Source: Actinomyces sp. oral taxon 448 str. F0400
GTDB lineage: Bacteria; Actinomycetota; Actinomycetes; Actinomycetales; Actinomycetaceae
Direction: 5' to 3'
Assembly (NCBI RefSeq): GCF_000220835.1
Contig: NZ_GL985606.1
Location: forward strand, 999,401-1,032,911
DNA: 33,511 nucleotides
Part shown: piece by piece, positions 2,973-24,239 of the stretch
How the letters are laid out: each line of letters begins with the position of its first letter
Position numbering within the stretch: the stretch's first letter is position 1
Notes under the pieces: generated by a model
The model's database searches: none
Seen by the model: only the letters and a program-made list of their open reading frames with translations
What the model was told of the DNA's origin: nothing
Made by a program: the position numbers and the translations under genes

Positions 2973-3929
2973 TCACGCGTTCTGCAGCAGCGCCCGCGCC
3001 GTCGGCTCGTCGGTGACCAGGGCGGACAGGTAGCCCCCGCGCAGCGCCGCGAGGATGGCCATGACCTTGTCGGAACCGGCGGCCACGCCGATGACCAGCG
3101 GGATCTCGTTCAGCCTGTCCGGGTCGAGACACAGGGTGCGGTCGCACAGGGAGGTGCGCACGTGGCGGCCGGCGGCGTCGAGGTGGTGGCCGCACACATG
3201 GGCCACCACGTTGCGTTGACGGCACTCGCGGACGACGCCGGGAGTCATCCAGCGGCGCAGCAGCGGGCTGACGGAGGATCCGACCGTGCCGATCCCCGTC
3301 AGGGCGACATCGCTTCGGGCGGCCAGCTCGAGAGTGGTGGCGACCTGGTCCTCTTTGCGCACGGCCCGGGCCAGGGATGGGGAGTCGAAAACGAGCGGCA
3401 CGGTCAGGGACCGGAATCGGCCGCCCAACCGCAGGGACAGATTGCGGCACACGTCGGGCCCGTCCTCCAGGTTGAAGGACTCCCCGACGCTGCCGAGCAT
3501 CGCCACAGTGGTCGAGGCCGGCCAGCTGCGCTCGGCCACATGGTGGACGACGGCGGCCACGGCCCGCCCGTTGGACACTGCGATCACGCTGCGCGGTCCG
3601 CAGTTCTCGACCAGCAGGTCGGCCGCGCTGCGGGCGACGTCGGGGCCGATGCCGGAGCCGCCTGCGGGCGCCGTCTCGCTCACGCGTGCGGTCGTGAGAC
3701 CGAAGGCGGCCACGAGCCGCTCCTCCAGAGCCATGAGGCGCTCGATGGGGTGGGCCACGGTGACGGTGACGATGCCGACGCGGCGCGCCTCGGTGAGCAT
3801 GCGCGAGACCGTGGGCCGCGAGTAGCCCGTGCGGCGGGCGATCTCCGCCTGGCCGAGGTCCTCCTCCCAGTAGAGGCGGGAGACCTCGAGCAGCACGGCG
3901 GCGCGGTCGCGAGTGAGGTCGGCGCACAC
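2973..3929 (-). CDS. SorC/DeoR-type sugar-responsive transcriptional regulator
   Basis: This 318-residue protein has an N-terminal helix-turn-helix (about 26-50, GQAEIARRTGYSRPTVSRML) followed by a SorC-type sugar-phosphate-binding domain. The hallmark C-terminal segment GGYLSALVTDEPTARALL is present. SorC regulators usually bind a phosphorylated sugar intermediate of the pathway they control and may activate or repress. The start is GTG at 3927-3929, with an AGGA about 8 bases upstream. It is transcribed divergently from the lactonase at 4159, with 229 bases between the starts, so the five-gene set to its right is the likely target. The inducer cannot be read from sequence; by analogy it would be a phosphorylated intermediate of that pathway. 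Confidence 0.88.
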   Translation of the reverse strand: MCADLTRDRAAVLLEVSRLYWEEDLGQAEIARRTGYSRPTVSRMLTEARRVGIVTVTVAHPIERLMALEERLVAAFGLTTARVSETAPAGGSGIGPDVARSAADLLVENCGPRSVIAVSNGRAVAAVVHHVAERSWPASTTVAMLGSVGESFNLEDGPDVCRNLSLRLGGRFRSLTVPLVFDSPSLARAVRKEDQVATTLELAARSDVALTGIGTVGSSVSPLLRRWMTPGVVRECRQRNVVAHVCGHHLDAAGRHVRTSLCDRTLCLDPDRLNEIPLVIGVAAGSDKVMAILAALRGGYLSALVTDEPTARALLQNA

Positions 3930-3980
3930 GTGTTCATCCTAGAAGGATCGCGTCGCTCGTACTCCTTCTTCGTCCGGAGA

Positions 3981-4001
3981 ATTCAATGAATCGACGAATC
4001 G
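3981..4001. promoter_or_regulatory. Candidate operator in the SorC/lactonase divergent promoter region
   Basis: An odd-length perfect palindrome ATTCAATGAAT (3981-3991) overlaps a direct repeat GAATCG at 3988-3993 and 3996-4001. A related inverted pair CATTC/GAATG occurs at 4066-4070 and 4078-4082. These lie in the 229-base gap between the divergent regulator and lactonase genes, in sequence more AT-rich than its surroundings. Binding by the SorC protein is inferred from position only. Confidence 0.35.
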
Positions 4002-4038
4002 GTCGGGGCTGGAGAAAACGCATCCGCACGAATGTTCT

Positions 4039-4058
4039 CTTCCGCCCTCCGGCGGAAG
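4039..4058. promoter_or_regulatory. Perfect inverted repeat upstream of the lactonase gene
   Basis: Arms of 8 bases (CTTCCGCC and GGCGGAAG) flank a 4-base loop CTCC. The element lies 100 bases before the lactonase start and is not followed by a T-run. An operator or an mRNA 5' leader hairpin fits better than a terminator. Confidence 0.4.
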
Positions 4059-4158
4059 CGCGGCTCATTCCTACCGTGAATGTCACCGGTCGGCGGGGCC
4101 CCTGATGAGAGCGCCGTCGCCGGATCGCTCGCAGATCACCAGTTCGAAGGAGAGCCTC

Positions 4159-5151
4159 ATGGGTATCGTCCGCACCATCCACGGCGACGTCGACCCGTCG
4201 ACCCTCGGCGTCGTCAACGCCCACGACCACCTCATCCGCGTCGGCGCCGGCGAGGTCTACATCGACCCCGATCACCTCCTCGTCGATGAGGACAAGGCAG
4301 CTCAGGAGGCCGCCTACTTCGTCGAGGCATCCAAACGCTTCGCCCCCACCGCCACCATCGTCGACATGTGCCCGGCCTCCTCGGGCCGCGGCGTCGTCAA
4401 GCTCAAGCGCGTCGTCGACCGCGTCCCCGACCTCCAGGTCGTCGCGGCCACCGGGTTCCACCAGCAGAAGGTCTACCTGGAGTGGCGCCAGTCCTGGGCC
4501 AATCAGTACACGGTCACCGAGATCGCCGACCTGCTCATCGCCGACGTCGTCGAGGGCATCGATGCGGGCGACTACATGGGCCCTCTGGTCAAGCGCACCG
4601 ACGTGCGCGCCGGCGTCATCAAGTGGGCCACCGCCTACGGCAGGATCACCGACTGGGAGGTCAAGACCGGGAAGGCCATCGCTATTGCGTCGAAGGAGAC
4701 CGGCGCCCCGATCAACACCCACGTCACCGCCGGCACCTGCGGCCCGGAGCAGGCCCGTTTCCTCATCAATGAGGGCGTGGCGCCCGAGAAGATCGCCATC
4801 GGTCACATCCAGCGCAACTGGGACCCGTGGATCCACGAGCAGATCGTCTCCGCCGGCGCCTACGTCGAGCTCGACGGCACCAACCGCATCAAGTACGTGC
4901 CCGACAACGCTCGCGTCAACCTCATCAAGACGCTGAAGGAGAAGGGCTACGGCAAGCAGGTCCTGCTGGGCACCGACTCGGGCAAGGCGTCCTACCAGAA
5001 GGTCTACGGCTCGGTTTCGGGCATCGACTATGACCCGGCCGTCTTCTGCCCGCGCCTGATCGACGACGAGGGTGTGGACCCGGACTACGTCCAGGACCTC
5101 CTGGTGGACAACGCCGCCGCCTTCTTCGCCTTCGAGCCCCTCGCGGGCTGA
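4159..5151 (+). CDS. Phosphotriesterase-fold (COG1735-type) lactonase, probably acting on a phosphorylated sugar lactone
   Basis: This 330-residue amidohydrolase has every ligand of the binuclear metal site of the phosphotriesterase family: HxH at His22/His24 (NAHDHL), the bridging Lys155 (RAGVIKWA), His188 (NTHVT), His216 (IGHIQ) and Asp273 (GTDSG). Characterised COG1735 members hydrolyse sugar lactones, including pentono-lactone 5-phosphates. I infer a lactone or lactone-phosphate substrate because the next genes encode UlaD- and UlaE-like enzymes, so this protein would stand where UlaG (ascorbate-6-phosphate lactonase) acts in enteric bacteria. ATG 4159 is chosen because GAAGGAGA lies just upstream; an in-frame ATG at 4105 has no such site. 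It is the first gene of the SorC-linked set, and the stop is 16 bases before the next start. An organophosphate substrate is unlikely. Confidence 0.88.
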   Translation: MGIVRTIHGDVDPSTLGVVNAHDHLIRVGAGEVYIDPDHLLVDEDKAAQEAAYFVEASKRFAPTATIVDMCPASSGRGVVKLKRVVDRVPDLQVVAATGFHQQKVYLEWRQSWANQYTVTEIADLLIADVVEGIDAGDYMGPLVKRTDVRAGVIKWATAYGRITDWEVKTGKAIAIASKETGAPINTHVTAGTCGPEQARFLINEGVAPEKIAIGHIQRNWDPWIHEQIVSAGAYVELDGTNRIKYVPDNARVNLIKTLKEKGYGKQVLLGTDSGKASYQKVYGSVSGIDYDPAVFCPRLIDDEGVDPDYVQDLLVDNAAAFFAFEPLAG

Positions 5152-5167
5152 GCGGGGGCGAGTCGAG

Positions 5168-5821
5168 ATGGCACCCAAGCTGCAGATCGCCTTGGACACC
5201 TTCGACCTGCCCGGTGCGCTGGGACCGCTGCAGAAGGCGGCCCCCCACGTCGATATCGTCGAGTGCGGCACCATCCTCGTGCTGTGCGAGGGCTACCGCG
5301 CTGTGCGGGCGATCCGGGCCCTCTTCCCGGACAAGCAGATCCTGGCCGACGTGCGCATCGCCGAGGCCGGCTCCACGATCGCCCGACTCGCCTTCGAGGC
5401 CGGCGCGGACCTGGTCTCCTGCGTGGCGGGGGCCTCCCTGGCCACGATTGAGCAGGTCTGCAAGGTCGCTGCCGAGTTCAACGGCGAAGTGCAGGTCGAG
5501 CTGGCCGACGAGTGGTACGACGCCGATCGGGCTCGCGCCTGGCGCGCGGCCGGAGTCCAGCACGTCATCGTCAAGCGTTCGCGGGACCGCGAGGCGGCCG
5601 GCGACCTGTCCTGGAGGCCCGAGGACATGGACCGCGTCGACGAGCTGGCCGCGATGGGCTTCACCGTCACCGTCACCGGCGGGGTCAGCGCCGCGGATCT
5701 GCCGGCCTTCGCGGGCCGCAGGGTCGGCATCGTCATCGCCGGCCGGGCCATCGTCGCCGCCGACGACCCGGCGGCCGCGGCCGCCGAGCTGCGCACCACC
5801 GTGGAGGAGGTGTGGCCATGA
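5168..5821 (+). CDS. UlaD/HPS-family (OMPDC suprafamily) decarboxylase or aldolase with altered active site
   Basis: The 217 residues align along their whole length with 3-keto-L-gulonate-6-phosphate decarboxylase (UlaD/SgbH). Shared features are LQIALD at 5-10, VECGT at 31-35, a strand-3 motif at 59-68, VTVTGG at 167-172 and the phosphate-binding AGR at 191-193. UlaD decarboxylates 3-keto-L-gulonate-6-phosphate to L-xylulose-5-phosphate. Two residues differ from characterised UlaD. The DxK motif reads DVR (Arg63 in place of Lys), and the HRSR motif reads KRSR (Lys136 in place of His). Asp61 and Arg139 are kept. Family membership is clear, but the reaction may be modified. It follows the lactonase by 16 bases and overlaps the next gene by ATGA, so the two are translationally coupled. 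The start ATG has only a weak purine-rich site. Confidence 0.85.
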   Translation: MAPKLQIALDTFDLPGALGPLQKAAPHVDIVECGTILVLCEGYRAVRAIRALFPDKQILADVRIAEAGSTIARLAFEAGADLVSCVAGASLATIEQVCKVAAEFNGEVQVELADEWYDADRARAWRAAGVQHVIVKRSRDREAAGDLSWRPEDMDRVDELAAMGFTVTVTGGVSAADLPAFAGRRVGIVIAGRAIVAADDPAAAAAELRTTVEEVWP

Positions 5822-6765
5822 GCTCCGACGTCGCGCAAGCGGATGCCGCACGGACCGGTGCCGCGGCCGGCACGGGCCTCAGGGCGGGTATCAGTCTCGG
5901 CATCTATGAGAAGGCGCTGCGCAGCGGCCCGTTGGGAGGCTCCGGGAGCCGCGCGAGCGGCGAGGTCTGGCGGGACTTCCTCGACCAGGTGCCCCGGGCC
6001 GGCTTCTCCTACCTGGACATCTCCATCGACGAGTCCCCTCAGAGGGAGGCCCGCCTGGAGTGGGGACCGCGCCAGTGCCGCGGGGTTCGTGACGCCGCGG
6101 ATGCGGTCGGCACCGACGTCGGCGGCATCTGCCTGTCGATCCACCGCAGGATCGCCCCGGGCTCGGCCGATCCCGCGGTGCGTCGCCGGGCCCGCGAGGT
6201 CATGGCGCGGGGTCTGGAGGTCTGCCACGACCTCGGCGCCCCGGTCATCCAGCTCGCCGGCTACTACTGCTACTACGAGGACCCGAACCCCGACGCGGAG
6301 CGCTGGTACGGCCAGCTCCTGGCCGACGCGGTCCCCATGGCCGCCCGACTGGGAGTGGTCATGGGCATCGAGAACGTCGACGGCACCGACGTCACCTCGA
6401 TCCGCAAGGCCATGGAGTTCGTCGACGCCGTCGACTCCCCCTACCTTCAGGTTTACCCCGACCTCGGCAACATCGCCGAGCAGGGGCTCGATCCCGCCGT
6501 CGAGCTTCAGGCCGGGACGGGGCACATGGTGGCGATGCACGCCAAGGACGTGCGCCGCGGCGAGCCCCGCCGCGTCGACGTGGGCACCGGCATCGTCGAC
6601 TGGGACCGCTCCTTCGAACTGCTCCGGGACCAGCACTGGGCGGGTCGCCTCATGATCGAGATGTGGAACGACGACGCGCCGGACTCCCTCGAGCGGTGCG
6701 CGGCCGCCCGGGAGTTCATCGAGCGCAAGGCGGCCGGTGCCGGGATCGATGTCCTGTCGCCCTGA
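5818..6765 (+). CDS. ulaE: L-ribulose-5-phosphate (L-xylulose-5-phosphate) 3-epimerase, UlaE/SgbU type
   Basis: UlaE-type enzymes interconvert L-xylulose-5-phosphate and L-ribulose-5-phosphate. This 315-residue TIM-barrel protein has the four expected metal ligands: Glu185 (GIENVDG), Asp215 (VYPDLGN), His241 (MHAKDV) and Glu281 (LMIEMWN). GISLGIYEKAL near residue 24 is also typical of the family. ATG 5818 overlaps the preceding stop as ATGA, and GAGGAGG lies just upstream. The N-terminus is some 20 residues longer than the conserved core and looks unstructured. Its product is the substrate of the AraD-type epimerase encoded at 10616-11401, which would complete conversion to D-xylulose-5-phosphate. 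A 211-base gap separates it from the next gene of the set. Confidence 0.88.
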   Translation: MSSDVAQADAARTGAAAGTGLRAGISLGIYEKALRSGPLGGSGSRASGEVWRDFLDQVPRAGFSYLDISIDESPQREARLEWGPRQCRGVRDAADAVGTDVGGICLSIHRRIAPGSADPAVRRRAREVMARGLEVCHDLGAPVIQLAGYYCYYEDPNPDAERWYGQLLADAVPMAARLGVVMGIENVDGTDVTSIRKAMEFVDAVDSPYLQVYPDLGNIAEQGLDPAVELQAGTGHMVAMHAKDVRRGEPRRVDVGTGIVDWDRSFELLRDQHWAGRLMIEMWNDDAPDSLERCAAAREFIERKAAGAGIDVLSP

Positions 6766-6908
6766 GCGGTACCGCCGCGGGGAGCGTCGCGCCGCGGTTC
6801 CGACCGCTGGTGCGGCACCCCGCCTCAACGCCGGCCCGCAGCACCATACGGCGCCGCTCCGGCGTCCATCCTCAGCCACCCCTACACCCCCAGCACCTTG
6901 AGCAACCC

Positions 6909-6960
6909 CGACGGCCAGGTCCGCGGACCCGCCGCGAGACGGTCCGACGAACGGCCGTCG
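6909..6960 (+). promoter_or_regulatory. Leader stem-loop with inner palindrome before the PfkB kinase gene
   Basis: An 8-base outer stem (CGACGGCC at 6909-6916, GGCCGTCG at 6953-6960) encloses a perfect 12-base palindrome GGTCCGCGGACC at 6918-6929. The right arm ends directly before the GAGAAGGA ribosome-binding site of the kinase. The rest of the 211-base gap (6766-6976) shows nothing else clear. It could be an operator, a processing or attenuation hairpin, or chance in GC-rich DNA. Confidence 0.35.
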
Positions 6961-6976
6961 GAGAAGGATTCGAACA

Positions 6977-7924
6977 ATGACGTACGACCTGACAACCATT
7001 GGCGAGGGACAGATTCGGTTGACGTGCGAACGCGGCGACCGTCTGGCCACCGCCCGCTCGCTGCGCATGACCGCCGCCGGCTCCGAGGCGAATGTCGCGG
7101 GGCTGTTGGCCGAGCTCGGCCGCTCCACGGCCTGGACGACCAAACTGCCCCGAGGCGAGCTGGCCGACCGCATCGCTCTGGAGTACTCCGCCGTCGGTGT
7201 GGATATGAGCCGCATCGTCATGGCCGATGAGGGCCGCGTCGCCCTCTACTTTCTCGAGCCCGGTGAGTTCCCCCTGCCCGGCAAGGTCACCTACGACCGC
7301 CAGTACACGCCCTTCCGCTCCATCGTCCCCGAGGAGTTCGACTGGGACGCGCTGCTCGATACCCGCGTCGTCTTCCTGACCGGAATCACGGCGGCCCTCA
7401 CGCCCGAGACCGCCCGCGTGGTGCGCTACTGCGCCGACGCCGCCTGCGAGCGGGGCGTCGACGTCGCTCTGGACGTCAACTTCCGCTCCCTGCTGTGGGA
7501 CGGCGACCAGGCCCGCACAGTGCTCGAGCCCATCGCGCGGCGGGCGGCGATCCTGTTCTGCTCGCGCTCGGACGCCGGCATCGTCTTCGGCATCGACGGC
7601 GAGGGCGTGACCGTGTGCCGCGCTCTGCGCGAGGAGATGGGCGCGCCCACGGTCGTGTCCACTGACGGCCGGGCGGGGACCTACCTGTCCACCGAGAGGA
7701 AGGATCGTGTCTTCGAGATCAAGTCGGTTCCGGTCATCGACCGTCCCGGCGCCGGCGACTCCTTCGTATCCGGCACCCTGCACGGGTGGCTCGACGGCGA
7801 CGTCGAGCACGGCATCGAGATGGGCACCAAGGTGGCTCAGCTCGCACTGACCCACCACGGCGACCTCACGCACGTGCGGCTCGGCGAGCTCCAGTTCCTC
7901 GGCAGCTCGGACATCGTCCGGTGA
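6977..7924 (+). CDS. PfkB-family carbohydrate kinase, 2-keto-3-deoxygluconate-kinase-like
   Basis: This 315-residue protein is a ribokinase/PfkB-fold sugar kinase that transfers the gamma-phosphate of ATP to a sugar hydroxyl. The N-terminal GSEANVAGLLAELG (about 35-48) is the sugar-binding signature. LDVNFR at 165-170 resembles 2-keto-3-deoxygluconate kinases, and DRPGAGDSF at 255-263 is PfkB signature 2 with the catalytic base Asp261. GAGAAGGA precedes ATG 6977 at good spacing. It is followed after 45 bases by an MFS transporter. Because that transporter does not phosphorylate its cargo, I infer that this kinase makes the phosphorylated intermediate used by the lactonase and decarboxylase-like enzyme. 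No KDG-phosphate aldolase is encoded nearby, which argues against a plain KDG kinase role. Confidence 0.86.
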   Translation: MTYDLTTIGEGQIRLTCERGDRLATARSLRMTAAGSEANVAGLLAELGRSTAWTTKLPRGELADRIALEYSAVGVDMSRIVMADEGRVALYFLEPGEFPLPGKVTYDRQYTPFRSIVPEEFDWDALLDTRVVFLTGITAALTPETARVVRYCADAACERGVDVALDVNFRSLLWDGDQARTVLEPIARRAAILFCSRSDAGIVFGIDGEGVTVCRALREEMGAPTVVSTDGRAGTYLSTERKDRVFEIKSVPVIDRPGAGDSFVSGTLHGWLDGDVEHGIEMGTKVAQLALTHHGDLTHVRLGELQFLGSSDIVR

Positions 7925-7969
7925 CGACGTCAACTCCCATTGATTCACAGTAATAAGATTGGACGGCAT

Positions 7970-9364
7970 ATGAGCGCGCAACGAGCAGTGGCGTCTGCGG
8001 CGCCTCAGGGGAAGACGGCCCCTGAACAGATCGACAACCACCGTCTCACCGGGCACCAGATCTCCCTCATCTCGATGGCCATCATCGGCAACGTGTCGGA
8101 GTTCTTCGACATGTTCCTCATCGGATTCATCGTTAACCTTTTGACCAACGCGCCCGGCTGGGAGCTCACCGGGTTCCACTCGGGCATTATCCTGGCCGGT
8201 GCCGGTCTAGGGACCGTGCTGGGGTCCATCGCCTGGGGCCGGCTGGCCGATAAGATCGGGCGTAAGCAGGCATTCATCTGGTGCATCGGCGTCCTCGTGG
8301 CCTTCACCGCGGCCTCGGCCTTCACGCCCGTCAACGGGTGGATCGTCCTGGCGATCCTGCGCACGGGCGTCGGTTTCGGCGTCGGCGGTCTCAACATCAC
8401 CTCGGTGCCCTACGTTCAGGAGTTCGTGCCCGCCAAGCAGCGTGGTCTGCTGGCGGGGCTGACGAGCGTCTTCATTCCGGCCGGCATCTTCCTGGGCGGG
8501 CTCGTCACCAAGTACCTCGGTGACGACCTCGGGTGGCGCGGCCTGATCGCCGTCGGCTGCATCCCGATCATCCTGCTGGCCTGGGCCAGGATCATTCCCG
8601 AGTCCCCCCGCTTCCTGCTCATGCGGGGCCGTGAGCAGGAAGCGAGGGACGCCTACGCCTGGGCCATGGAGATCCCCGTCGACCAGGTGGCGGAGCTCCC
8701 CGCGCTGCCGAAGGAGATCTCTGCCTCCTACTCGGTCATCTTCACCAAGTACCCCAAGCAGCTGCTCGTCGTCTCCCTCGGCTCCTTCTGCTTCATCCTG
8801 GGCTCCTTCACAGTCCAGTCCTGGGGGCAGACGCTGCTGGGCCAGTCCTTCACCTTCGCCCCCAAGACGGTGGCGACCCTGTTCATGTTCGTTTCGCTCG
8901 GCGACCTGCTCGGACGGTTGGGTTCGGCGTGGATCTCGGATCACATCGGGCGGCGCTGGACCATGTTCGGCTACGGCCTCATCGGCGCCGCCGGCGCCCT
9001 CGTAGCCGCCCTGTCCACCCGTATGGTCCACGGCGACGACGTCGGCAGCGCCGGCCACATCTTCTTCGCCGGCATCTTCATCATCATGATGTTCGGCGAC
9101 GGCGCCTTCGGCATTCTCAATGCCTTCGGCGGCGAGCAGTTCCCCACCGAGGCCCGCTCGACCGGCCTGGGGCTGGGCTACGGCATCGGCGCGGTCGCCA
9201 AGGTCGTCGGCCCGTACGTCGTCGGGGCTCTCATCGGCAATAGCGACTTGACCGCGGAGGTCGTCTTCCTGCCCTTCATGATCTTCGCAGTCCTCCTGCT
9301 GCTGGGAGGCGTCATCTACCTCTTCGCCAGGGAGACGAAGGGAGCGTCCCTGGAGGACATCTGA
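7970..9364 (+). CDS. MFS transporter, sugar or organic-acid proton symporter type
   Basis: This 464-residue integral membrane protein has about 12 hydrophobic segments in two halves. The loop 2-3 motif of the major facilitator superfamily is present (GRLADKIGRKQ) and recurs as SDHIGRRW in the second half. PESPRFLL follows segment 6, as in sugar porters and aromatic-acid/metabolite symporters. It would import an unphosphorylated solute using the proton gradient. I chose ATG 7970; an in-frame TTG at 7940 would add ten poorly conserved residues. It is the last gene of the SorC-linked set, next to the PfkB kinase, so its cargo is probably the kinase substrate or a precursor: a sugar acid, sugar lactone or ascorbate-like molecule. 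The cargo cannot be fixed from sequence. Confidence 0.88.
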   Translation: MSAQRAVASAAPQGKTAPEQIDNHRLTGHQISLISMAIIGNVSEFFDMFLIGFIVNLLTNAPGWELTGFHSGIILAGAGLGTVLGSIAWGRLADKIGRKQAFIWCIGVLVAFTAASAFTPVNGWIVLAILRTGVGFGVGGLNITSVPYVQEFVPAKQRGLLAGLTSVFIPAGIFLGGLVTKYLGDDLGWRGLIAVGCIPIILLAWARIIPESPRFLLMRGREQEARDAYAWAMEIPVDQVAELPALPKEISASYSVIFTKYPKQLLVVSLGSFCFILGSFTVQSWGQTLLGQSFTFAPKTVATLFMFVSLGDLLGRLGSAWISDHIGRRWTMFGYGLIGAAGALVAALSTRMVHGDDVGSAGHIFFAGIFIIMMFGDGAFGILNAFGGEQFPTEARSTGLGLGYGIGAVAKVVGPYVVGALIGNSDLTAEVVFLPFMIFAVLLLLGGVIYLFARETKGASLEDI

Positions 9365-9526: not shown

Positions 9527-10351
9527 TCAGGCCGACGACGAGTCATCGTCGCAGGCCGGTGGTCGTCTCCCGCGAGGTGCGTTCTGCTGCGCGGACGGCT
9601 GAGGGTCCGTCGGAGTCCGGCCGTATTCGGACTGGGCCCGCCCGTCGGGAGGGGTGTAGCCGGTCGGGATCTGTCCGTAGGGAGCGTGCGGGGTCTGCCC
9701 GTAGGGATTGGTGTAGCCGGTCGCGGAGGTCGGGGCCTGTCCGTAGGGAGCGTGCGGGGCTTGTCCGTAGGGATTGGTGTAGCCGGTCGCGGAGGTCGGG
9801 GCCTGTCCGTAGGGAGCGTGCGGGGTCTGCCCGTAGAGGTTGGTGTAGCCGGTCGCGGAGGTCGGGGCCTGCCCGTAGGGAGCGTGCGGGGCCTGCCCGT
9901 AGGGAGCGTGCGGGGCCTGCCCGTAGAGGTTGGTGTAGCCGGTCGGAGTCCGCCCTCCGCCCGCTGCCGCCTGGACCCCCACCGGTTGGGCCGGCGGCGC
10001 AGCGCCCCAGGGCTGCTGGGGGACGGCGGCCTGGCCGGGGGCGAGCCGCAGGAGATCCGGCGGTAGGCCGGTGACCGGATCCCGGCCGAGCTTGTGGGCC
10101 AGCAGAGCCCGGTCGCGATTGCGGACCATGCGAGGGGCGATCTTGAGGACGAGGTCGTCGAGCAGCTGGGCGATGCCGATGAGGATGACGACCGGAATGG
10201 CGATCAGAAAGAAGGGGATGCGCACGCGGGGCCCCTTCGAGAGCCAGGCCAGGAACATGATGAATCCCACTGCCCCCAGAATGAGTATGAGGGTGAGGAT
10301 GAGGGGGTAGAGCTTCGAGCGCGGTTCCTTCGGCTTGTCTGCGTCTGCCAT
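9527..10351 (-). CDS. Small membrane protein with repeated Tyr/Pro/Gln-rich C-terminal tail
   Basis: The family is not recognised. The 274 residues begin with a short charged N-terminus, then two transmembrane segments (about 14-36 and 44-67) separated by a short basic loop. A basic region (about 70-95) follows, then a proline/glutamine-rich tail. Residues 138-230 of the tail are tandem repeats of a 22-residue unit built from GYTN[LP]YGQ, [AT]PHAPYGQ and APTSAT blocks. One copy carries an extra eight-residue PHAPYGQA block. The tail is low-complexity and probably disordered, in the style of Gly/Tyr/Pro-rich actinobacterial tails that may promote multimerisation; this role is an inference. ATG 10349-10351 is preceded by AAGGAGCCTCC. 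It sits alone between two sugar loci and shows no link to sugar metabolism. Confidence 0.82.
   Translation of the reverse strand: MADADKPKEPRSKLYPLILTLILILGAVGFIMFLAWLSKGPRVRIPFFLIAIPVVILIGIAQLLDDLVLKIAPRMVRNRDRALLAHKLGRDPVTGLPPDLLRLAPGQAAVPQQPWGAAPPAQPVGVQAAAGGGRTPTGYTNLYGQAPHAPYGQAPHAPYGQAPTSATGYTNLYGQTPHAPYGQAPTSATGYTNPYGQAPHAPYGQAPTSATGYTNPYGQTPHAPYGQIPTGYTPPDGRAQSEYGRTPTDPQPSAQQNAPRGRRPPACDDDSSSA
9662..9940 (-). repeat. In-frame 66-base tandem repeats encoding the Tyr/Pro/Gln tail
   Basis: About four units of 66 bases (22 codons), one enlarged by 24 bases (8 codons), encode residues 138-230 of the membrane protein. All length differences are multiples of three, so the frame is kept. The last unit is cut short before the unique C-terminus. 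Unit-to-unit differences are a few bases (for example NLYGQ/NPYGQ and QAP/QTP), suggesting recent expansion. Confidence 0.9.
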
Positions 10352-10615
10352 GAGGAGGCTCCTTCGCGGGGTTGGGACACGGTGACGTCGGACGCCCGGC
10401 CACAGCATCCGTCCTCACCCCGGCTGTCGCAAGGCCGTGCGTCTCTACGTCCCTCGACGAGGACTGGGCGAATGGGAGACGGACGTACCGACGACCCGCC
10501 GTCTCCGAACCGTCTCCCGCGCCCTCGCATGCTCTCATGGTCCCGGGGGAGCCGACGCGTCGGCGTTGTCGGGCTGCGCGGTTGCGTGCGGGGCGATCAG
10601 CCCGGTGCCCGCCGA

Positions 10616-11401
10616 TCAGTGCTGCCCGTAGACGTTCTGGTAGCGGTCGTTGAGCTTGTCGACCAGGTTCTGGTCGATGAGTGTGATCTCGCCGCCGGCG
10701 CGGGCGATGTGGATGGTGCGGGCGACCTCCTCGCACATGGCGGCGGCCTTGACGGCGGCACGGGCGTCCCTTCCGATGGTGAAGGGGCCGTGGTTGGCCA
10801 TGAGGACGGCCGGGGACTTCGAGTCGGACAGGGTTTCGACGATGCCGCGCCCGATGGAGTCGTCCCCGATGAGGGCGAAGGGTCCTACGGGGATGTCGCC
10901 GCCGAACTCGTCGCCCATCATGGTCAGGGCGCAGGGGATGGGCTCGCGGCGCGCCGCCCAGGCGGTGGCGTAGGTGGAGTGGGTGTGCACGATGCCGCCG
11001 ACCCGGTCCATGTGGCGGTAGACGTAGGCGTGGGCGGCGGTGTCGGAGGACGGGGTGAGAGAGGCCGGCGTGCCGTCGTCGATCTTGTCCCCCTCCAGGG
11101 TGCACACGACCATGGTGTCGGCTCTCAGCTCGTCGTAGGAGACGCCGGAGGGCTTGATGACGAACAGATCGGTCGTGATCGTCTCGCCGTTGCGCGTGAG
11201 GGTGACCCGTTCGGAGACGTTGCCGGCGGTCCACACCACCAGGCCCCACCGGGGCAGTTCGGCGTGCAGGGCCGAGACTCTCTCGCGGGTTGCCGCCACC
11301 GCCTCCTGGATATCGGCGTCCAGCTCGGACAGGACGATCTGGTCTGGTGAGGTGTGTGTCTGGGGCAACTCGGGCACCGTTCTTTCGTTCTCTCTACTCA
11401 T
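10616..11401 (-). CDS. araD: L-ribulose-5-phosphate 4-epimerase (AraD/UlaF type)
   Basis: AraD converts L-ribulose-5-phosphate to D-xylulose-5-phosphate with a zinc ion. In this 261-residue class II aldolase-fold protein, TAGNVSER (58-65), KPSGVSYDEL (83-92) and PSSDTAAH (117-124) form the phosphate- and substrate-binding loops. HTHSTYA supplies zinc ligands His139 and His141, NHGPF supplies His204, and the C-terminal DRYQNVYGQ holds the conserved tyrosine. ATG 11399-11401 is the start chosen, although it lacks a clear Shine-Dalgarno; a GTG eight codons downstream (11375-11377) follows a purine-rich stretch and is an alternative. It is divergent from an FGGY kinase with 283 bases between. It can serve arabinose catabolism or finish the UlaD/UlaE-like route. 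Confidence 0.93.
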   Translation of the reverse strand: MSRENERTVPELPQTHTSPDQIVLSELDADIQEAVAATRERVSALHAELPRWGLVVWTAGNVSERVTLTRNGETITTDLFVIKPSGVSYDELRADTMVVCTLEGDKIDDGTPASLTPSSDTAAHAYVYRHMDRVGGIVHTHSTYATAWAARREPIPCALTMMGDEFGGDIPVGPFALIGDDSIGRGIVETLSDSKSPAVLMANHGPFTIGRDARAAVKAAAMCEEVARTIHIARAGGEITLIDQNLVDKLNDRYQNVYGQH

Positions 11402-11684: not shown

Positions 11685-13283
11685 ATGACCCCTTCCACCA
11701 CGACACCACCGCAGGCCGTCGCCCTGGATCTGAGCAGGACCGCGCTGGGCATCGAGCTCGGCTCGACCCGCATCAAGGCCGTCCTCATCGACCGGTCCCA
11801 TGCCGTCGTCGCCTCCGGCTCCCACGAGTGGGCCAACGACCTGGTCGACGGCGTGTGGACCTACGCCATCGACGACGTCGTCGCGGGGCTGCGGGCCGCC
11901 TACGCCGGGCTCGCCTGCGACCTGCGGGACCGGTACTCCATCGAGCTGACCACGGTCGGGGCCATCGGCATCTCCGCGATGATGCACGGCTACATCCCCC
12001 TGGATGCCGACGGCGAGCTGCTGACCGCCTTCCGCACCTGGCGCAACACCTTCACCCAGGAGTCCTCGGCGGTCCTGTCGGGGCTGTTCGGGCTCAACAT
12101 CCCCCAGCGCTGGTCGGTGGCCCATCTCCACCACGCCATCGTCCGCGGCGAGGAGCACGTGGCGCGCATCGCCCGCATCACAACTCTGGCGGGCTACGTC
12201 CACCACCGTCTGACGGGTCGCCACGTTCTGGGCGTGGGGGAGGCCTCGGGCGTCTTCCCCATAGGGACGGACGGCCGCTCCTTCGACGCCGGGATGGTCG
12301 CCGCCTTCGACGAAGCGGTGGATGTGCCATGGTCCCTGATCGACGTCCTGCCGCGAATCGCCGTCGCCGGTCAGGATGCCGGCACGCTGACCGCCGCCGG
12401 CGCGGCCCTGCTCGACCCCACCGGCATGCTGCGTCCCGGGGTGCCGCTGTGTCCGCCCGAGGGCGACGCCGGCACCGGCATGGTGGCCACCAACTCGGTG
12501 CGCCCGCGCACCGGCAACGTCTCGGCGGGCACCAGCGCCTTCGCCATGATCGTCCTGGAGCGGCCGTTGCGGACCCTGGTGGAGCAGATCGACCTGGTCG
12601 CCACGCCGTCGGGAGCGCCTGTGGCCATGGCCCATTCCAACAACTGCACGAGCGACCTCAACGCCTGGGTCGAGGTCTTCGACCAGTTCGCTCGGGCCAT
12701 CGGCGCCCCGGTCGAGCGCGGCCGGCTCTTCGACGTCCTGCTGGGTGCAGCGGACGACGGTTCCATGGACGACGCCGGGGTGGTGGCCTTCAACTTCCTG
12801 TCCGGGGAGCACCTGGTGGGTCTGGCCTCGGGCAGGCCCATGGTGGTGCGCCGCCCCGAGAGCACGCTGTCGCTGGCGGCCCTTATGCGCGCCCACCTGT
12901 TCGCCGCCTTCGCCTCGATGGCCTATGGCGTCAGAGTGCTGCGCGCCAATGCCGATGTCCCCATCGACTCGATGTTCGCCCACGGGGGCATCTTCGCCAC
13001 GCCCGAGATCCCTCAGCGCGTCCTGGCCGCCGCTTTCAACACGCCCGTGTCGGTGGGCGCCACCGCCTCCGAGGGCGGGGCATGGGGCATGGCCCTGCTC
13101 GCCGGTTACATGCTGTGGGCCGAGGGCCGGCCGCTGGAGGACTACCTCTCACAGGTTGTTTTCCGCGACATGGAGATCCTCACCATTGCGCCCGCGCCCG
13201 AGCAGGCCGAGGAGTATGCCCGCTACCTGGAGACGTTCATGCGGGCACTGCCGGTCGAGGCCGCGGCCGCCGAGGTCTTCTGA
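11685..13283 (+). CDS. FGGY-family pentulose kinase, probably L-ribulokinase-like
   Basis: This 532-residue FGGY kinase phosphorylates a ketopentose or related sugar with ATP. The first phosphate-binding motif is GIELGSTRIKAVLID (22-36). The catalytic aspartate is probably Asp261 in PEGDAGTGMVATNS, and a second phosphate motif GNVSAGTSAF follows at 277-286. HSNNCTSDLN (317-326) and FAHGGIFATPE are characteristic of this subgroup and differ from the xylB product at 25552. AGGA lies 8 bases before ATG 11685. Its divergent partner is araD, which uses L-ribulose-5-phosphate, so L-ribulose is the best guess; L-xylulose (LyxK-like) is possible because UlaE can act on that product. No araA isomerase is present in the window. 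It converges on transketolase. Confidence 0.85.
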   Translation: MTPSTTTPPQAVALDLSRTALGIELGSTRIKAVLIDRSHAVVASGSHEWANDLVDGVWTYAIDDVVAGLRAAYAGLACDLRDRYSIELTTVGAIGISAMMHGYIPLDADGELLTAFRTWRNTFTQESSAVLSGLFGLNIPQRWSVAHLHHAIVRGEEHVARIARITTLAGYVHHRLTGRHVLGVGEASGVFPIGTDGRSFDAGMVAAFDEAVDVPWSLIDVLPRIAVAGQDAGTLTAAGAALLDPTGMLRPGVPLCPPEGDAGTGMVATNSVRPRTGNVSAGTSAFAMIVLERPLRTLVEQIDLVATPSGAPVAMAHSNNCTSDLNAWVEVFDQFARAIGAPVERGRLFDVLLGAADDGSMDDAGVVAFNFLSGEHLVGLASGRPMVVRRPESTLSLAALMRAHLFAAFASMAYGVRVLRANADVPIDSMFAHGGIFATPEIPQRVLAAAFNTPVSVGATASEGGAWGMALLAGYMLWAEGRPLEDYLSQVVFRDMEILTIAPAPEQAEEYARYLETFMRALPVEAAAAEVF

Positions 13284-13428
13284 CCGGGCCCCGCCCCGTC
13301 GCGGGACGCGGCGCGGCGGGGCCGGACGGCCCGGCATCTCGCACGTCAGCCCCGTCTTCAGCGCCGAGATCCGGACCGTCGGGATTCCAGGTGTCCTATT
13401 GCCCACTGCTGACGGGCGGTAGCGGATA

Positions 13429-13470
13429 ACGCCGGGGCCGGCCGCTCGCACGAGCGGCCGGCCCCGGCGT
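13429..13470. terminator. Strong bidirectional terminator between the FGGY kinase and transketolase genes
   Basis: A perfect inverted repeat with 20-base arms (13429-13448 and 13451-13470) and a 2-base centre, almost entirely G and C, lies between the convergent stops at 13283 and 13485. It can fold equally well in either transcript. U-tracts are poor, as is common in high-GC actinobacteria. Confidence 0.85.
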
Positions 13471-13484
13471 CGTCCCCGACTCGG

Positions 13485-15569
13485 TCAGGCCCGAGCGAGG
13501 GCTTCGCGCGCCCGGGCGGCGACGTTCTCCCCCGTGAAGCCGTACTCGTGGAACAGGTCGGCGGCCGGGGCGGAGGCGCCGAAGTGGTCGATGGAGACGA
13601 TCGCCCCGCCGCTGCCGACGCGCTCGCGCCAGCCCATGGCAATGCCGGCCTCGACGGATACGCGCACGCCGTTCTCGGGCAGGACCGAGGCGCGGTAGGC
13701 CTCGTCCTGCTGGTCGAACCACTCCAGGCAGGGGGCGGAGACGACGCGCGTCGGCGTTCCCCCGGCCTGGAGGAGCTCGCGGGCCTCGACCGCGACCGAG
13801 ACCTCGGAACCGGTGGCGATGATGGTCACCTCAGGGGTGACGGGGACGCCCTCGGCGTCGGTGGCGTCGACCAGGACGTAGGCGCCGCGGCGCACGCCCT
13901 CGCGGGCGGCGAGCGCCGAGGTCAGGACCGGGAGGTTCTGGCGCGACAGGATGATGCCGGCGGGCTCGTGACGGCGCCGCAGCATCTCGACCCAGGCGGC
14001 TGCGGTTTCGTTGGCGTCGGCCGGTCGGACGACGTCGAAGCCGGGAATGGCGCGCAGGGAGGCCAGGTGCTCGATGGGCTGGTGGGTGGGGCCGTCCTCG
14101 CCCACGCCGATCGAGTCGTGGCTCCACACGAAGATGGTGGGGATCCGCATGAGAGCGGCCAGGCGAACGGCTGGGCGCATATAGTCAGCGAAGACCATGA
14201 AGGTGCCGCCGTAGGCCCGAGTCAGGCCGTCCAGAACGATGCCGTTGAGGGCCCCGCCCATGGCGTGCTCGCGCACTCCGAAGTGGATGATGCGCCCCCA
14301 GGGGCCGTCGCCCTCCTCCGCAGCCAGGGAGGCGGGCAGGAAGGAGGGCTCTCCGGCCATGTCCGTCTTGTTGGAGCTGCCCAGGTCGGCCGAGCCGCCC
14401 CACAGCTCGGGGACCACGGGGGCCAGGGCGGAGAGCGTCTCGCCCGAGGCGTTGCGGGTGGCCGCCGAGTCCCCGACCTCCCAGGTCGGCACGGCGGCGT
14501 CGAGACCCGCGGGCGGCTCGCCGGCCAGTAGACGGTCCAGCAGACCGGCCCGCTCGGGGTTGGACGCCCGCCACGCGGTGAAGCGGGCGTCCCAGTCGGC
14601 GCGCTCGGCAGCGGCGCGCTCGGCAGCGTGGGCGCGGGTGCGCTCCAGGACGCCATTGGTGGCGAAGGCCTTCTCGGGGTCCAGGCCGAGAGTCCGCTTG
14701 AGTCCGGCGAGCTCCTCAGCGCCCAGCTTGGCCCCGTGGCTGGACTCCTTGCCCTGTTTGGTGGGGGCGGGCCAGGCGATGATCGTGCGCAGGCGGATGA
14801 GGGAGGGGCGGGCGGTCTCGGCGCGTGCCGCCGCGATGGCCTCGTGGAGGGCGGCGAGATCCTCGTGGTACTGGCCGCCGGCGGTCCAGTCGACCTCGAG
14901 GACCTGCCACCCGTAGGCGGCGAAGCGGGCGGAGGGGTCCTCGGTGAAGGAGAGGTCGGTGTCCCCCTCGATGGAGATGTCGTTGTCGTCGTAGATGGCG
15001 ATGAGGTTGCCCAGCTGCTGGGTGCCGGCCAAGGAGGCGGCCTCGGAGGATACGCCCTCCTGCAGGCAGCCATCGCCCATGAGCGTGTACACGTAATGGT
15101 CGAACACCGACTCGCCGTCGGGTGCGGTGGGGTCCAGCAGGCCGTGCTCGTAACGGGCGGCCATGGCCATGCCCACCGCGTTGGAGAAACCGGCGCCCAG
15201 GGGGCCGGTGGTGGTCTCGACGCCCTTGGTGTGACCGAACTCCGGGTGCCCCGGTGTGAGCGACCCGGCGGTACGCAGCGCTGCGATGTCGGAGACCTCC
15301 AGACCGTAGCCCGCCATGGCCAGCTGAATGTACTGCAGCAGCGAGGCGTGGCCCTCCGAGAGCACGAAGCGGTCGCGACCCAGCCACCGGTCGTCGGCCG
15401 GGTCGCCGATCATCTCGTACTGGTAGAGCAGGTAGGCCGCAGGAGCCAGGGAGATGGCGGAGCCGGGGTGGCCCGAACCGGCCTTCTCCACGGCGTCGGC
15501 GGCCAGGGCCTTGGCGACGTTGATCGCCTTGAGGTCGAGGTCGGTGAGCTGGAGGGTCTCAGCACTCAC
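13485..15569 (-). CDS. tkt: Transketolase
   Basis: Transketolase moves two-carbon units between pentose and hexose phosphates using thiamine diphosphate and a divalent metal. The 694 residues are full length. SGHPGS near residue 32 starts the N-terminal diphosphate domain. The thiamine-diphosphate motif begins MGDGCLQEG and ends about 29 residues later at DDND. The central pyrimidine domain contains FGVREHAMGG with the cofactor-activating Glu, and RPADANE marks the later part. The start is GTG 15567-15569 with AAGGAG 8-9 bases upstream; longer in-frame reading into the upstream region is not conserved in character. It is divergent from the ABC operon and convergent on the FGGY kinase. It would channel D-xylulose-5-phosphate made by both the xylose and ribulose routes. 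It may be the only copy or a locus-specific one. Confidence 0.96.
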   Translation of the reverse strand: MSAETLQLTDLDLKAINVAKALAADAVEKAGSGHPGSAISLAPAAYLLYQYEMIGDPADDRWLGRDRFVLSEGHASLLQYIQLAMAGYGLEVSDIAALRTAGSLTPGHPEFGHTKGVETTTGPLGAGFSNAVGMAMAARYEHGLLDPTAPDGESVFDHYVYTLMGDGCLQEGVSSEAASLAGTQQLGNLIAIYDDNDISIEGDTDLSFTEDPSARFAAYGWQVLEVDWTAGGQYHEDLAALHEAIAAARAETARPSLIRLRTIIAWPAPTKQGKESSHGAKLGAEELAGLKRTLGLDPEKAFATNGVLERTRAHAAERAAAERADWDARFTAWRASNPERAGLLDRLLAGEPPAGLDAAVPTWEVGDSAATRNASGETLSALAPVVPELWGGSADLGSSNKTDMAGEPSFLPASLAAEEGDGPWGRIIHFGVREHAMGGALNGIVLDGLTRAYGGTFMVFADYMRPAVRLAALMRIPTIFVWSHDSIGVGEDGPTHQPIEHLASLRAIPGFDVVRPADANETAAAWVEMLRRRHEPAGIILSRQNLPVLTSALAAREGVRRGAYVLVDATDAEGVPVTPEVTIIATGSEVSVAVEARELLQAGGTPTRVVSAPCLEWFDQQDEAYRASVLPENGVRVSVEAGIAMGWRERVGSGGAIVSIDHFGASAPAADLFHEYGFTGENVAARAREALARA

Positions 15570-15850
15570 TGTGGAACTCCTTACGTCATAGCTGATGGGT
15601 CTGCGTCCGCGCGCCGGGCGGTTCGATGCGGTGCCGGTCGGCATCCTCATGCGGTGCCGGGGAGCGTGGCAAGAAACGTCGTGAACGGATGCTCGCCTCG
15701 GCGTGTCGGATCCGGAGGACATCCTGCCACGGATAGTCCTCCAACGGAACAAAAATATCGGCACGTGCGAGTCAGGCCCGGGATGGTGCGGGTTTACCGA
15801 GTTGACGAGCATCATGGAGAGTCCTTGTTCATGGGGTATCGATCGTCCGC

Positions 15851-15879
15851 TTGACTTTGCAGTTGCGTGGTGCCACACT
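15851..15879 (+). promoter_or_regulatory. Candidate promoter of the ABC sugar-import operon
   Basis: TTGACT (15851-15856) is a good -35 hexamer, followed after 17 bases by CACACT (15874-15879), a weak -10. The predicted start lies just before the operator at 15893, consistent with repression by the operon's LacI protein. Confidence 0.45.
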
Positions 15880-15892
15880 TCATCCGCCGCGT

Positions 15893-15908
15893 TTTGAACC
15901 GGTCCAAA
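15893..15908. promoter_or_regulatory. LacI-family operator upstream of the ABC operon
   Basis: TTTGAACCGGTCCAAA is a 16-base palindrome with a central CG and one mismatched pair, the usual layout of LacI/GalR operators. It sits downstream of the candidate promoter and about 65 bases before the lipoprotein gene. The LacI regulator encoded last in this operon (20780) is the natural candidate to bind it, giving autoregulation. Confidence 0.6.
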
Positions 15909-15973
15909 GAAGGGGCGGACGACGACGGCGTGTGCTCGACGGCGAGCGCAACGAGTTCCGATGGAGGATTGAC

Positions 15974-17008
15974 ATGAAGCGTGGTTTCAAGTCCGCACTC
16001 GTGGCCGGCGTGGCCTGTGCGGCGCTCGCGCTGGCCGGTTGCGCGGGCGGCAAGGGCGCCAGCTCATCCGGGGGCACCGCCGGGGCGGGAGGGGACTCGG
16101 GTTCCACCTCGGTGGCCTTCGTTCCCAAGGTCCAGGGGATTCCGTTCTTCGAGGCCATGAACTCCGGCGGCCAGGACGCCGGCGAGGAGTTCGGCTTCCA
16201 ATGGGTCTACAGCGGTCCGACCACCGCCGACCCTGCGGCCCAGAGCGAGGTCGTCCGCTCCCTCATGCAGCAGCGGGTCGACGCCCTCATGGTCGCCCCG
16301 AACGATCCCGACTCCATGGCACCGGTTATCACCGAGGCCCAGGGGCAGGGCATCAAAGTCGGTACGGCCGACACCGATGCCTCGAGCTCCAGCCGTGAGG
16401 TCTTCGTGACGCAGGCGACCGAGGAGGCCATCGGAACCGCCCTCCTGGAGCAGATCGCCGCGCCCCTGAACGGGGAGGGCGAGGTCGCCATCGTCTCGTG
16501 CGGCCAGACCGCGGCCAACCTCAACGCCTGGATCAAGGTCATCCAGGACAAGGCCGCCACCGACTACCCCGACCTCAAGATCGTCGAGACCGTCTACGCC
16601 GACGAGGACCAGGCCAAGGCGGTCACGATGGCCAAGAACCTCATCAATGCCTACCCCGACCTCAAGGGTCTCATCGGCCCGTGCACCACCGCGGCGCCCG
16701 GTGTCGCCCAGGCGGTCCAGGAATCGGGCAAGACCGGGCAGATCCACACCACCGGTGTCGGCACGCCCCAGGCGATGCTGCCCTACCTCCAGGACGGCTC
16801 CTCATCGGCCTCCGTTCTCTGGGACGTGGAGAACCTCGGCTACCTCACCGCCTGGGCCGGGTGGAAGCTGGCCCAGGGCGAAACCTTCGCGCCGACCCAG
16901 GACGTCGGCCGCATCTCAGGGGTCACCTACGACGAGTCCTCCAAGACTCTGGTCATGGGCCGCCCACTGATCCTGACAGCGGACAACGCCGGAGACTACG
17001 ACTACTGA
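15974..17008 (+). CDS. Sugar ABC transporter substrate-binding lipoprotein, RhaS/LsrB-like
   Basis: This 344-residue periplasmic-binding-protein-fold lipoprotein captures a sugar outside the membrane. A lysine/arginine-rich start and hydrophobic stretch lead to the lipobox LAGC with Cys23, followed by a Gly/Ser linker. The mature protein has VAFVPKVQGIPFFEAMNSGG and YSGPTTADPAAQ near its start, typical of rhamnose- and autoinducer-2-type binding proteins. ATG 15974 is preceded by GGAGGA. It heads a five-gene unit with an ATPase, two permeases and a LacI regulator. No rhamnose catabolic genes and no lsr kinase or aldolase are present, so the true ligand is unknown. The nearby TIM-barrel isomerase at 21921 may use it. 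Confidence 0.9.
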   Translation: MKRGFKSALVAGVACAALALAGCAGGKGASSSGGTAGAGGDSGSTSVAFVPKVQGIPFFEAMNSGGQDAGEEFGFQWVYSGPTTADPAAQSEVVRSLMQQRVDALMVAPNDPDSMAPVITEAQGQGIKVGTADTDASSSSREVFVTQATEEAIGTALLEQIAAPLNGEGEVAIVSCGQTAANLNAWIKVIQDKAATDYPDLKIVETVYADEDQAKAVTMAKNLINAYPDLKGLIGPCTTAAPGVAQAVQESGKTGQIHTTGVGTPQAMLPYLQDGSSSASVLWDVENLGYLTAWAGWKLAQGETFAPTQDVGRISGVTYDESSKTLVMGRPLILTADNAGDYDY

Positions 17009-17126
17009 CCCACCGATCGTGCGGCGACGCTCGACCCGGGTGCGGGGTCGCAGGCCGGCCCCGCACCCGGTGCCCGCGCGGACCGTCGCAGAGCGGTCGG
17101 GGAAGCCGGTCGGAAAGACGCGGAAC

Positions 17127-20775: not shown

Positions 20776-20779
20776 CCCC

Positions 20780-21796: not shown

Positions 21797-21798
21797 CC

Positions 21799-21843
21799 CG
21801 GTCACCGGTGGTCCGCTCAGGTTGAGCGGACCACCGGTGACCG
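21799..21843 (+). terminator. Strong rho-independent terminator ending the ABC operon
   Basis: Perfect 21-base arms (21799-21819 and 21823-21843) flank a 3-base loop GGT. They begin three bases after the LacI gene stop, and the downstream sequence is T-rich (TTATTCCTCACATTTTAT). It isolates the ABC operon from the isomerase gene at 21921. Confidence 0.93.
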
Positions 21844-21855
21844 CAGTTATTCCTC

Positions 21856-21892
21856 ACATTTTATATTTCACACATCCCATATTTCGTACATT
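21856..21892 (+). promoter_or_regulatory. AT-rich regulatory stretch before the TIM-barrel isomerase gene
   Basis: In very GC-rich surroundings, this stretch is mostly A and T. It contains a direct repeat ATATTTC at 21863-21869 and 21879-21885 (period 16). Placed right after a terminator and 30-60 bases before a GTG start, it is probably the promoter, possibly with an operator. I cannot assign clean -35 and -10 hexamers. Confidence 0.5.
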
Positions 21893-21920
21893 GGAATGAC
21901 GAATCGGAGAGGAGCCCGGC

Positions 21921-24169: not shown

Positions 24170-24173
24170 GCTC

Positions 24174-24213
24174 TTGACCTTACCCCATCGCCATGTCATA
24201 GTTGTCCCAACAA
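24174..24213 (+). promoter_or_regulatory. xylA promoter with overlapping operator
   Basis: TTGACC (24174-24179) and CATAGT (24197-24202), exactly 17 bases apart, form a good sigma-70-type promoter toward xylA. The palindrome TTGT-CCCA-ACAA (24202-24213) starts at the last base of the -10 and covers the expected start site, the classic place for a repressor. ROK/XylR repressors in Gram-positive bacteria often bind TTnGT-type palindromes, which supports the ROK protein as the ligand. Confidence 0.65.
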
Positions 24214-24239
24214 ACAAATTCTGGCTCAAGGAGGAGACC

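What the first reader, a model, noticed from the sequence alone, without database searches (positions are those of the whole stretch)
2973..9364. PTS-free, UlaG-free ascorbate/ketogulonate-like catabolic set under a SorC regulator
Lactonase (phosphotriesterase fold), UlaD-like, UlaE-like, PfkB kinase and MFS transporter lie together, divergent from a SorC regulator. In the known ula route the sugar enters through a PTS as ascorbate-6-phosphate and UlaG opens the lactone. Here import and phosphorylation appear to be split between an MFS carrier and a PfkB kinase, and an unrelated metal-dependent fold would open the lactone. AraD (10616) and transketolase (13485) in the same window would complete the path to central metabolism. 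The set is coherent, and I know of no described pathway with exactly this combination. The substrate, and whether phosphorylation precedes lactone opening, are inferred.
Basis: partly seen in the sequence, partly recalled or inferred. Interest (0 to 1): 0.72.

Follow-up and report, generated by a model that had tools for sequence, protein, structure and literature searches.

The report
PTS-free vitamin C breakdown operon
Oral and skin actinobacteria carry a conserved gene set that most likely takes up vitamin C and breaks it down without the usual phosphate-coupled importer, with a kinase predicted to add the phosphate to vitamin C and a decarboxylase whose normally fixed catalytic residues are changed.

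Summary
SorC / PTE-fold lactonase / KGPDC-like / UlaE-like / PfkB kinase / MFS form a real, widely conserved cassette; an AraD (UlaF-type) gene usually goes with it, the transketolase does not. Of 200 family genomes 30 have the KGPDC gene, each time within about 50 bp of the lactonase gene. The window's genome has neither the PTS ascorbate permease family nor UlaG.

A natural swap sharpens the reading. In Micropruina the cassette lacks the PTE lactonase and ends with a UlaG (586 bits, cut-off 306). A second genome also has UlaG instead, with an ABC importer; a third has both. So the PTE protein most likely does UlaG's job, opening L-ascorbate 6-phosphate, and the PfkB kinase acts first, as a predicted ascorbate 6-kinase.

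PTE in place of UlaG is not new: mycoplasma ula operons have it, and it is proposed in print (PMC4866288). New are the kinase-plus-importer entry and a KGPDC with D-x-R-x-x-E for D-x-K-x-x-D (239 of 240 listed homologues). Verdict: new variant of the ula pathway; biochemistry untested.

The parts
2973..3929 (-). SorC/DeoR-type sugar-binding transcriptional regulator, divergent from the operon
   Evidence: PF04198 185 bits; a SorC relative in 52 of 56 cassette stretches
3923..3936 (.). candidate operator, imperfect palindrome CGCACACGTGTTCA (one mismatch to TGMACANNTGTKCA); it overlaps the first codons of SorC as listed, so SorC may start further in
   Evidence: motif within 2 mismatches in 44 of 49 SorC/PTE intergenic regions against 2.4% of base-shuffled ones; pattern derived from the same set
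4159..5151 (+). PTE-fold (amidohydrolase) lactonase; predicted L-ascorbate 6-phosphate lactonase standing in for UlaG
   Evidence: PF02126 136 bits; best NCBIfam match phospho-furanose lactonase 217 bits, below its cut-off 630; best PDB match 3msr/3ovg; metal ligands and K/Y/Y plus basic phosphate-site residues kept
5168..5821 (+). KGPDC (UlaD)-like decarboxylase with D-x-R-x-x-E in place of D-x-K-x-x-D and K in place of H136
   Evidence: 1kv8 E=1.7e-50; motif
5818..6765 (+). UlaE-like L-xylulose/L-ribulose 5-phosphate 3-epimerase
   Evidence: NF009688 321.6 bits, cut-off 317; 3cqh E=3.9e-59
6977..7924 (+). PfkB kinase, nearest to 2-keto-3-deoxygluconate kinases; predicted ATP-dependent L-ascorbate 6-kinase
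   Evidence: PF00294 108 bits; NF041332 202 bits, below cut-off 440; 6 of 7 recalled pocket positions of T. thermophilus KDG kinase invariant in 29 of 29 aligned, the seventh G in 16 and C in 13
7940..9364 (+). MFS transporter, predicted ascorbate importer (start may be the ATG near 7970)
   Evidence: PF00083 141.6 bits; TIGR00895 aromatic acid:H+ symporter 173 bits, below its cut-off 418; PDB kin GlcP and SLC22
10616..11401 (-). AraD/UlaF-type L-ribulose 5-phosphate 4-epimerase, convergent neighbour (start approximate)
   Evidence: NF005123 355 bits, cut-off 251; aligns with 1jdi, Asp120 column kept (roles recalled); AraD-type gene inside (5) or beside (11) the cassette in 16 of 17 loci

Best explanation
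A PTS-independent L-ascorbate catabolic operon. SorC senses the sugar or a phosphorylated intermediate and controls a divergent operon. The MFS protein imports ascorbate as the free anion. The PfkB protein phosphorylates it with ATP at O6 to L-ascorbate 6-phosphate. The PTE-fold metalloenzyme opens the lactone to 3-keto-L-gulonate 6-phosphate (UlaG's reaction). The KGPDC-like enzyme, with a changed D-x-R-x-x-E catalytic motif, decarboxylates it to L-xylulose 5-phosphate; the UlaE-like and AraD-type epimerases make L-ribulose 5-phosphate and then D-xylulose 5-phosphate. Shown here by sequence and neighbourhood: gene set, conservation, no UlaG or EIIC-GAT match in the genome, UlaG/PTE alternation, residue changes. 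Inferred: substrate, order of steps, every catalytic activity, direction of transport.
For: Synteny. UlaG (586, 616 and 577 bits against cut-off 306) in three cassettes, in two of them without PTE; one of these two is nested in the PTE clade with starred support. Mycoplasma operons PTE-UlaABC-UlaD-UlaE-UlaF in 3 of 3 read. PTE phosphate pocket: the K-Y pair and the later Y invariant in 19 of 19 aligned, the two other basic positions K or R in 19 of 19 (that these bind phosphate in MS53_0025 is recalled). No oxidoreductase among the conserved genes, so the input must already have the oxidation state of a 3-keto acid, as ascorbate does (pathway knowledge). UlaE plus AraD beside KGPDC are needed only if the product of decarboxylation is L-xylulose 5-phosphate, which points to L-ascorbate and not, for instance, D-erythorbate (own derivation). 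No UlaG or EIIC-GAT match in the genome although HPr is present; controls over the cut-off in 1 of 14 (UlaG), 4 of 14 (EIIC-GAT) and 7 of 14 (HPr).
Against: No activity, growth or expression data. The kinase's nearest kin use open-chain keto acids and the pocket positions are kept, which fits phosphorylation after lactone opening. K64, D67 and H136, part of the published KGPDC signature, are replaced, so the decarboxylation could be altered or lost. The lactonase and KGPDC fall below the NCBIfam cut-offs. UlaG in G663 lies about 7.7 kb from KGPDC, across SorC, in an ABC-transporter stretch. UlaE was not found in L115 and L117 and is only 34% identical and displaced in L120. In Micropruina a dehydrogenase-like ORF (L048 7462-8457, named by eye) lies upstream of SorC. 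No operator-like site lies near AraD.
Confidence: 0.66

Rival explanations
1. Same substrate, other order: ascorbate is opened first to 3-keto-L-gulonate (by PTE or UlaG acting on the free lactone, or the acid is imported as such) and the KDG-kinase-like PfkB protein phosphorylates the open acid, as LyxK does in the E. coli yia-sgb route (recalled).
For: PfkB is closest to KDG kinases and keeps the residues aligned to Tyr89, Tyr103, Arg105 and Arg167 of T. thermophilus KDG kinase in 29 of 29 (roles recalled).
Against: The PTE protein keeps a basic phosphate pocket shared with mycoplasma and Listeria homologues that lie beside PTS genes, so that their substrates presumably enter phosphorylated, and UlaG, which replaces it, is an ascorbate 6-phosphate lactonase by family.
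Confidence: 0.2
2. A different lactone or keto acid: the changed KGPDC motif marks a new specificity and the cassette degrades another sugar-acid lactone that converges on a pentulose 5-phosphate.
For: R64 and E67 are fixed or nearly so in the cassette clade, and PTE-family relatives act on pentonolactone 5-phosphates (recalled).
Against: UlaG interchange; UlaE and AraD score above their family cut-offs; no oxidoreductase among the conserved genes for an aldonolactone substrate.
Confidence: 0.12
3. The KGPDC-like protein is not a decarboxylase any more but, for example, an HPS-like aldolase.
For: Catalytic lysine and aspartate replaced; TIGR03128 HxlA 147 bits, below its cut-off 200.
Against: E112, R139, T169 and R192, which differ between the KGPDC rows and the HPS row of the published table, are kept; no HxlB gene was seen in the cassette; both epimerases for the ula product are usually present.
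Confidence: 0.04

Closest known systems
E. coli-type ula operon (UlaABC PTS, UlaG, UlaD, UlaE, UlaF); read here in Pantoea
   Same: UlaD/E/F-type steps and end product; UlaG itself in three sister cassettes
   Different: no PTS; MFS (or ABC) importer plus PfkB kinase; SorC regulator; PTE lactonase in the window; changed UlaD catalytic motif
Mycoplasma ula operon with 'phospho-furanose lactonase' (PMC4866288, passages)
   Same: PTE-family lactonase in place of UlaG beside UlaD-UlaE-UlaF
   Different: mycoplasmas import by PTS and keep D-x-K-x-x-D; the lactonases are 34-35% identical to the window's
E. coli yia-sgb (2,3-diketo-L-gulonate) route (recalled)
   Same: PTS-free entry with a kinase feeding KGPDC, UlaE- and UlaF-type enzymes
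   Different: TRAP importer, reductase YiaK and an FGGY kinase there; here MFS, no reductase, PfkB kinase and a lactonase
Ralstonia L-ascorbate oxidation pathway (Stack et al. 2020, recalled)
   Same: PTS-free ascorbate catabolism
   Different: oxidative route to 2-oxoglutarate, no KGPDC
2-keto-3-deoxygluconate kinase
   Same: PfkB fold and most pocket positions
   Different: below the family cut-off (202 of 440 bits); beside KGPDC and UlaE here

Membership tests
ula ascorbate operon | PTS permease UlaABC | tested here: not met
   no EIIC-GAT (PF03611) match in the genome, 4 of 14 controls over the cut-off; no UlaABC in 56 cassette stretches
ula ascorbate operon | UlaG lactonase | tested here: not met
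   no match in the genome, 1 of 14 controls over the cut-off; but UlaG present in 3 sister cassettes
ula ascorbate operon | UlaE and UlaF-type epimerases | tested here: met
   NF009688 and NF005123 above cut-off; AraD is a convergent neighbour here, not in the operon
[quoted passage not shown]
   1kv8 1.7e-50; but below the NF009832 and NF009831 cut-offs
[quoted passage not shown]
[quoted passage not shown]
   signature as printed in PMC5980557 (passages)
[quoted passage not shown]
   needs an assay
phospho-furanose lactonase (NF045706) | family score | tested here: not met
   217 bits, cut-off 630
phospho-furanose lactonase (NF045706) | binuclear metal ligands and phosphate-binding residues | tested here: met
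   HxH, K, H, H, D and R/K/Y/K/Y kept in the window (residue roles recalled)
2-keto-3-deoxygluconate kinase | family score and KDG context | tested here: not met
   202 bits, cut-off 440; context KGPDC-UlaE

The most novel reading that the evidence does not exclude
The PfkB protein is an ATP-dependent L-ascorbate 6-kinase (the term 'ascorbate kinase' occurs in none of the 23 papers that one search returned), and the operon defines a PTS-independent vitamin C fermentation route in human-associated actinobacteria whose decarboxylase runs the KGPDC reaction with an Arg/Glu (and Lys) catalytic set in place of the Lys/Asp (and His) set of KGPDC and HPS.
Probability: 0.5. Interest if true: 0.75.

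Novelty: new variant of a known kind. Interest (0 to 1): 0.62.

Why it matters
If true, Actinomyces, Cutibacterium and relatives can consume vitamin C by a route that annotation looking for UlaABC and UlaG misses. It also predicts a new kinase activity, gives a clean case of two unrelated folds exchanged at one step, and offers a natural experiment on the best-studied catalytic motif of the OMP decarboxylase suprafamily: what happens when its lysine and aspartate become arginine and glutamate.

Tried and rejected
Transketolase as part of the set: rejected (beside 2 of 17 loci). FGGY kinase as the pathway kinase: rejected (beside 1 of 17). D-erythorbate as substrate: rejected on stereochemistry, since its product would be D-ribulose 5-phosphate and need no UlaE or AraD (own derivation). 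An ascorbate-type PTS elsewhere in the genome: not found, although HPr is present. PTE-for-UlaG as a novelty: rejected. An AraD operator: none found. Kinase residues as proof of an open-acid substrate: inconclusive, because the positions and roles are recalled and ascorbate is also an anion. Ten paper searches ran; several lists are capped (e.g. 20 of 66, 20 of 3,955, 15 of 4,536). Among the papers listed I saw none on this actinobacterial cassette; led to PMC4866288. Structure prediction was not run.

Limits. UlaG absence in 200 family genomes has no positive in that set; the same query rings in 3 of 197 genomes of the Micropruina family. The phylum search gave 51 of 396 genomes at E <= 1e-10, of which two (G000, G139) are cassette type; the other 49 are 27-37% identical, and the 26 of them aligned look like HPS. 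The operator pattern was derived from the set on which it was counted, and shuffles kept base content only. Genomes are related, so the chance figure (1.2e-33) overstates independence. The Micropruina genome is a MAG of unstated completeness. G663 was not searched whole for PTE: none by tblastn in L122, none seen among the ORFs of L149.
Full report
What is there. The window is part of a 2.83-Mb, 12-contig genome, 99.96% complete. Among the 17 named loci its KGPDC is closest to that of Actinomyces israelii (91%). KGPDC and UlaE genes overlap by ATGA at 5818-5821, and the lactonase starts at 4159 behind a ribosome-binding site.

It is one functional unit. Of 17 loci (Actinomyces, Cutibacterium, other Actinomycetaceae and Propionibacteriaceae, Micropruina) 17 have KGPDC, UlaE, PfkB and MFS and 16 have PTE; AraD-type genes lie inside the operon in 5 (L033, L041, L042, L046, L048), beside it in 11, and none was found in 1 (L035). 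In 200 genomes of the window's family, drawn from a larger group, KGPDC matches at E <= 1e-30 in 30 and PTE in 32; all 30 have both. In the 29 besides the window the two genes lie on one strand with 4-51 bp between the matched ends; in the window 16 bp lie between them. The two PTE-only genomes are G402 (a 37% relative beside an ascorbate-type PTS) and G533 (a decayed cassette). Adding 10 further genomes of the order and 20 of the Micropruina family, 60 genomes had KGPDC; PTE lies beside it in 57. The other three are G595 and G663 (UlaG instead) and G1131 (KGPDC itself broken, neither lactonase found).

The lactonase step. In Micropruina (L048, genome G595) the cassette is SorC-KGPDC-UlaE-AraD-PfkB-MFS and ends with a UlaG of 586 bits against a cut-off of 306; that genome gave one weak partial PTE match only (29% over 119 residues, E=1.5e-4). 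G663 has SorC/KGPDC-UlaE-PfkB with UlaG (616 bits) in a neighbouring stretch of ABC-transporter genes, and no MFS or PTE was found near. G1067 has both PTE and UlaG (577 bits) in one cluster. All three UlaG proteins keep the HxHxDH and GDSHYS motifs. On a KGPDC tree of 36 rows (window, 30 chosen loci, 5 PTS-linked) the Micropruina row sits inside the PTE-bearing clade (12-row set, 96/93, starred), so a swap is the simple reading; G663 lies outside on a long branch and its place is unsure. UlaG acts on L-ascorbate 6-phosphate (PMC3219644, passages), so the PTE protein most likely does too. Mycoplasma operons show the same replacement with a PTS in 3 of 3 read, and PMC4866288 proposed it from gene context (passages). 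The PTE pocket agrees: among 19 aligned sequences the K-Y pair and the later Y are invariant and the two other basic positions are K or R throughout; that these bind phosphate in MS53_0025 is recalled from a paper I could not open.

The phosphorylation step. The window's genome gave no EIIC-GAT and no UlaG match, with positive controls, while HPr is present. No UlaABC was found in 56 cassette stretches. If the lactonase needs a phosphorylated substrate, the only kinase of the cassette must act first. Against this stands the kinase's kinship to KDG kinases with most recalled pocket positions kept. I weigh the swap more heavily; the ascorbate anion could fill the same pocket.

The decarboxylase. 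PMC5980557 lists D62, K64, D67 and H136 in its KGPDC rows, with equivalents in its HPS rows (passages). The window has D, R, E, K. R is at position 64 in 120 of 120 and E at 67 in 119 of 120 (one K) of the best-listed homologues, and both in 120 of 120 of the list, where position 136 is K in 78 and H in 42. These lists are the best 120 of 839 and of 812. Every cassette locus with an intact KGPDC has R and E. The 6 PTS-linked UlaD proteins and the 26 HPS-like proteins aligned have K and D. Charge is kept and side chains are longer, so I expect the same reaction with altered geometry; this is inference.

Regulation. A palindrome close to TGMACANNTGTKCA occurs within two mismatches in 44 of 49 SorC/PTE intergenic regions (L086, the window's own second copy, left out), against 2.4% of base-shuffled ones; the pattern was derived from the same set. 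In the window it lies at 3923-3936; the only other site within two mismatches is at 5449, inside a gene.

Novelty. The term 'ascorbate kinase' had no occurrence in the 23 papers, and I saw no paper on this cassette in the lists, several of which are capped. The library omits most subscription journals, so this is weak evidence of absence. The pathway logic is that of ula, hence a new variant of a known kind.

Noticed in passing
window 9527-10408: ORF (-) with a 66-bp tandem repeat (9662-9905, 3.7 copies, 92% matches) coding for repeats rich in YGQAPHAPYGQ, lying between the MFS gene and AraD.
   Followed up: partly
window 11685-22877: FGGY kinase, transketolase, a sugar ABC importer (binding protein, ATPase, two permeases), a LacI-type regulator and a ketose 3-epimerase-like protein (21921-22877): looks like a separate sugar or polyol cluster (partly named by eye).
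   Followed up: no
window 24042-32381: Xylose isomerase-like, xylulokinase-like, a second SorC-type regulator and a second sugar ABC importer: xylose-type cluster, named by eye from the ORFs.
   Followed up: no
L107 (G533) and L144 (G1131): Cassettes in decay: PTE and KGPDC are fragments (L107), or KGPDC is broken and PTE not found (L144), while other genes remain.
   Followed up: partly
L106 (G402), L054 (Listeria), L148 (G979): PTE relative (L106, L054) or UlaG (L148) beside an ascorbate-type PTS without a KGPDC found in the stretch read: other lactone pathways of unknown substrate.
   Followed up: no
L136 (G1067): PTE and UlaG in one cluster around SorC, a possible intermediate of the lactonase swap.
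   Followed up: partly
L048 7462-8457: Dehydrogenase-like ORF (Gfo/Idh type by eye) upstream of SorC in Micropruina; not seen as part of the cassette elsewhere, but not searched for.
   Followed up: no
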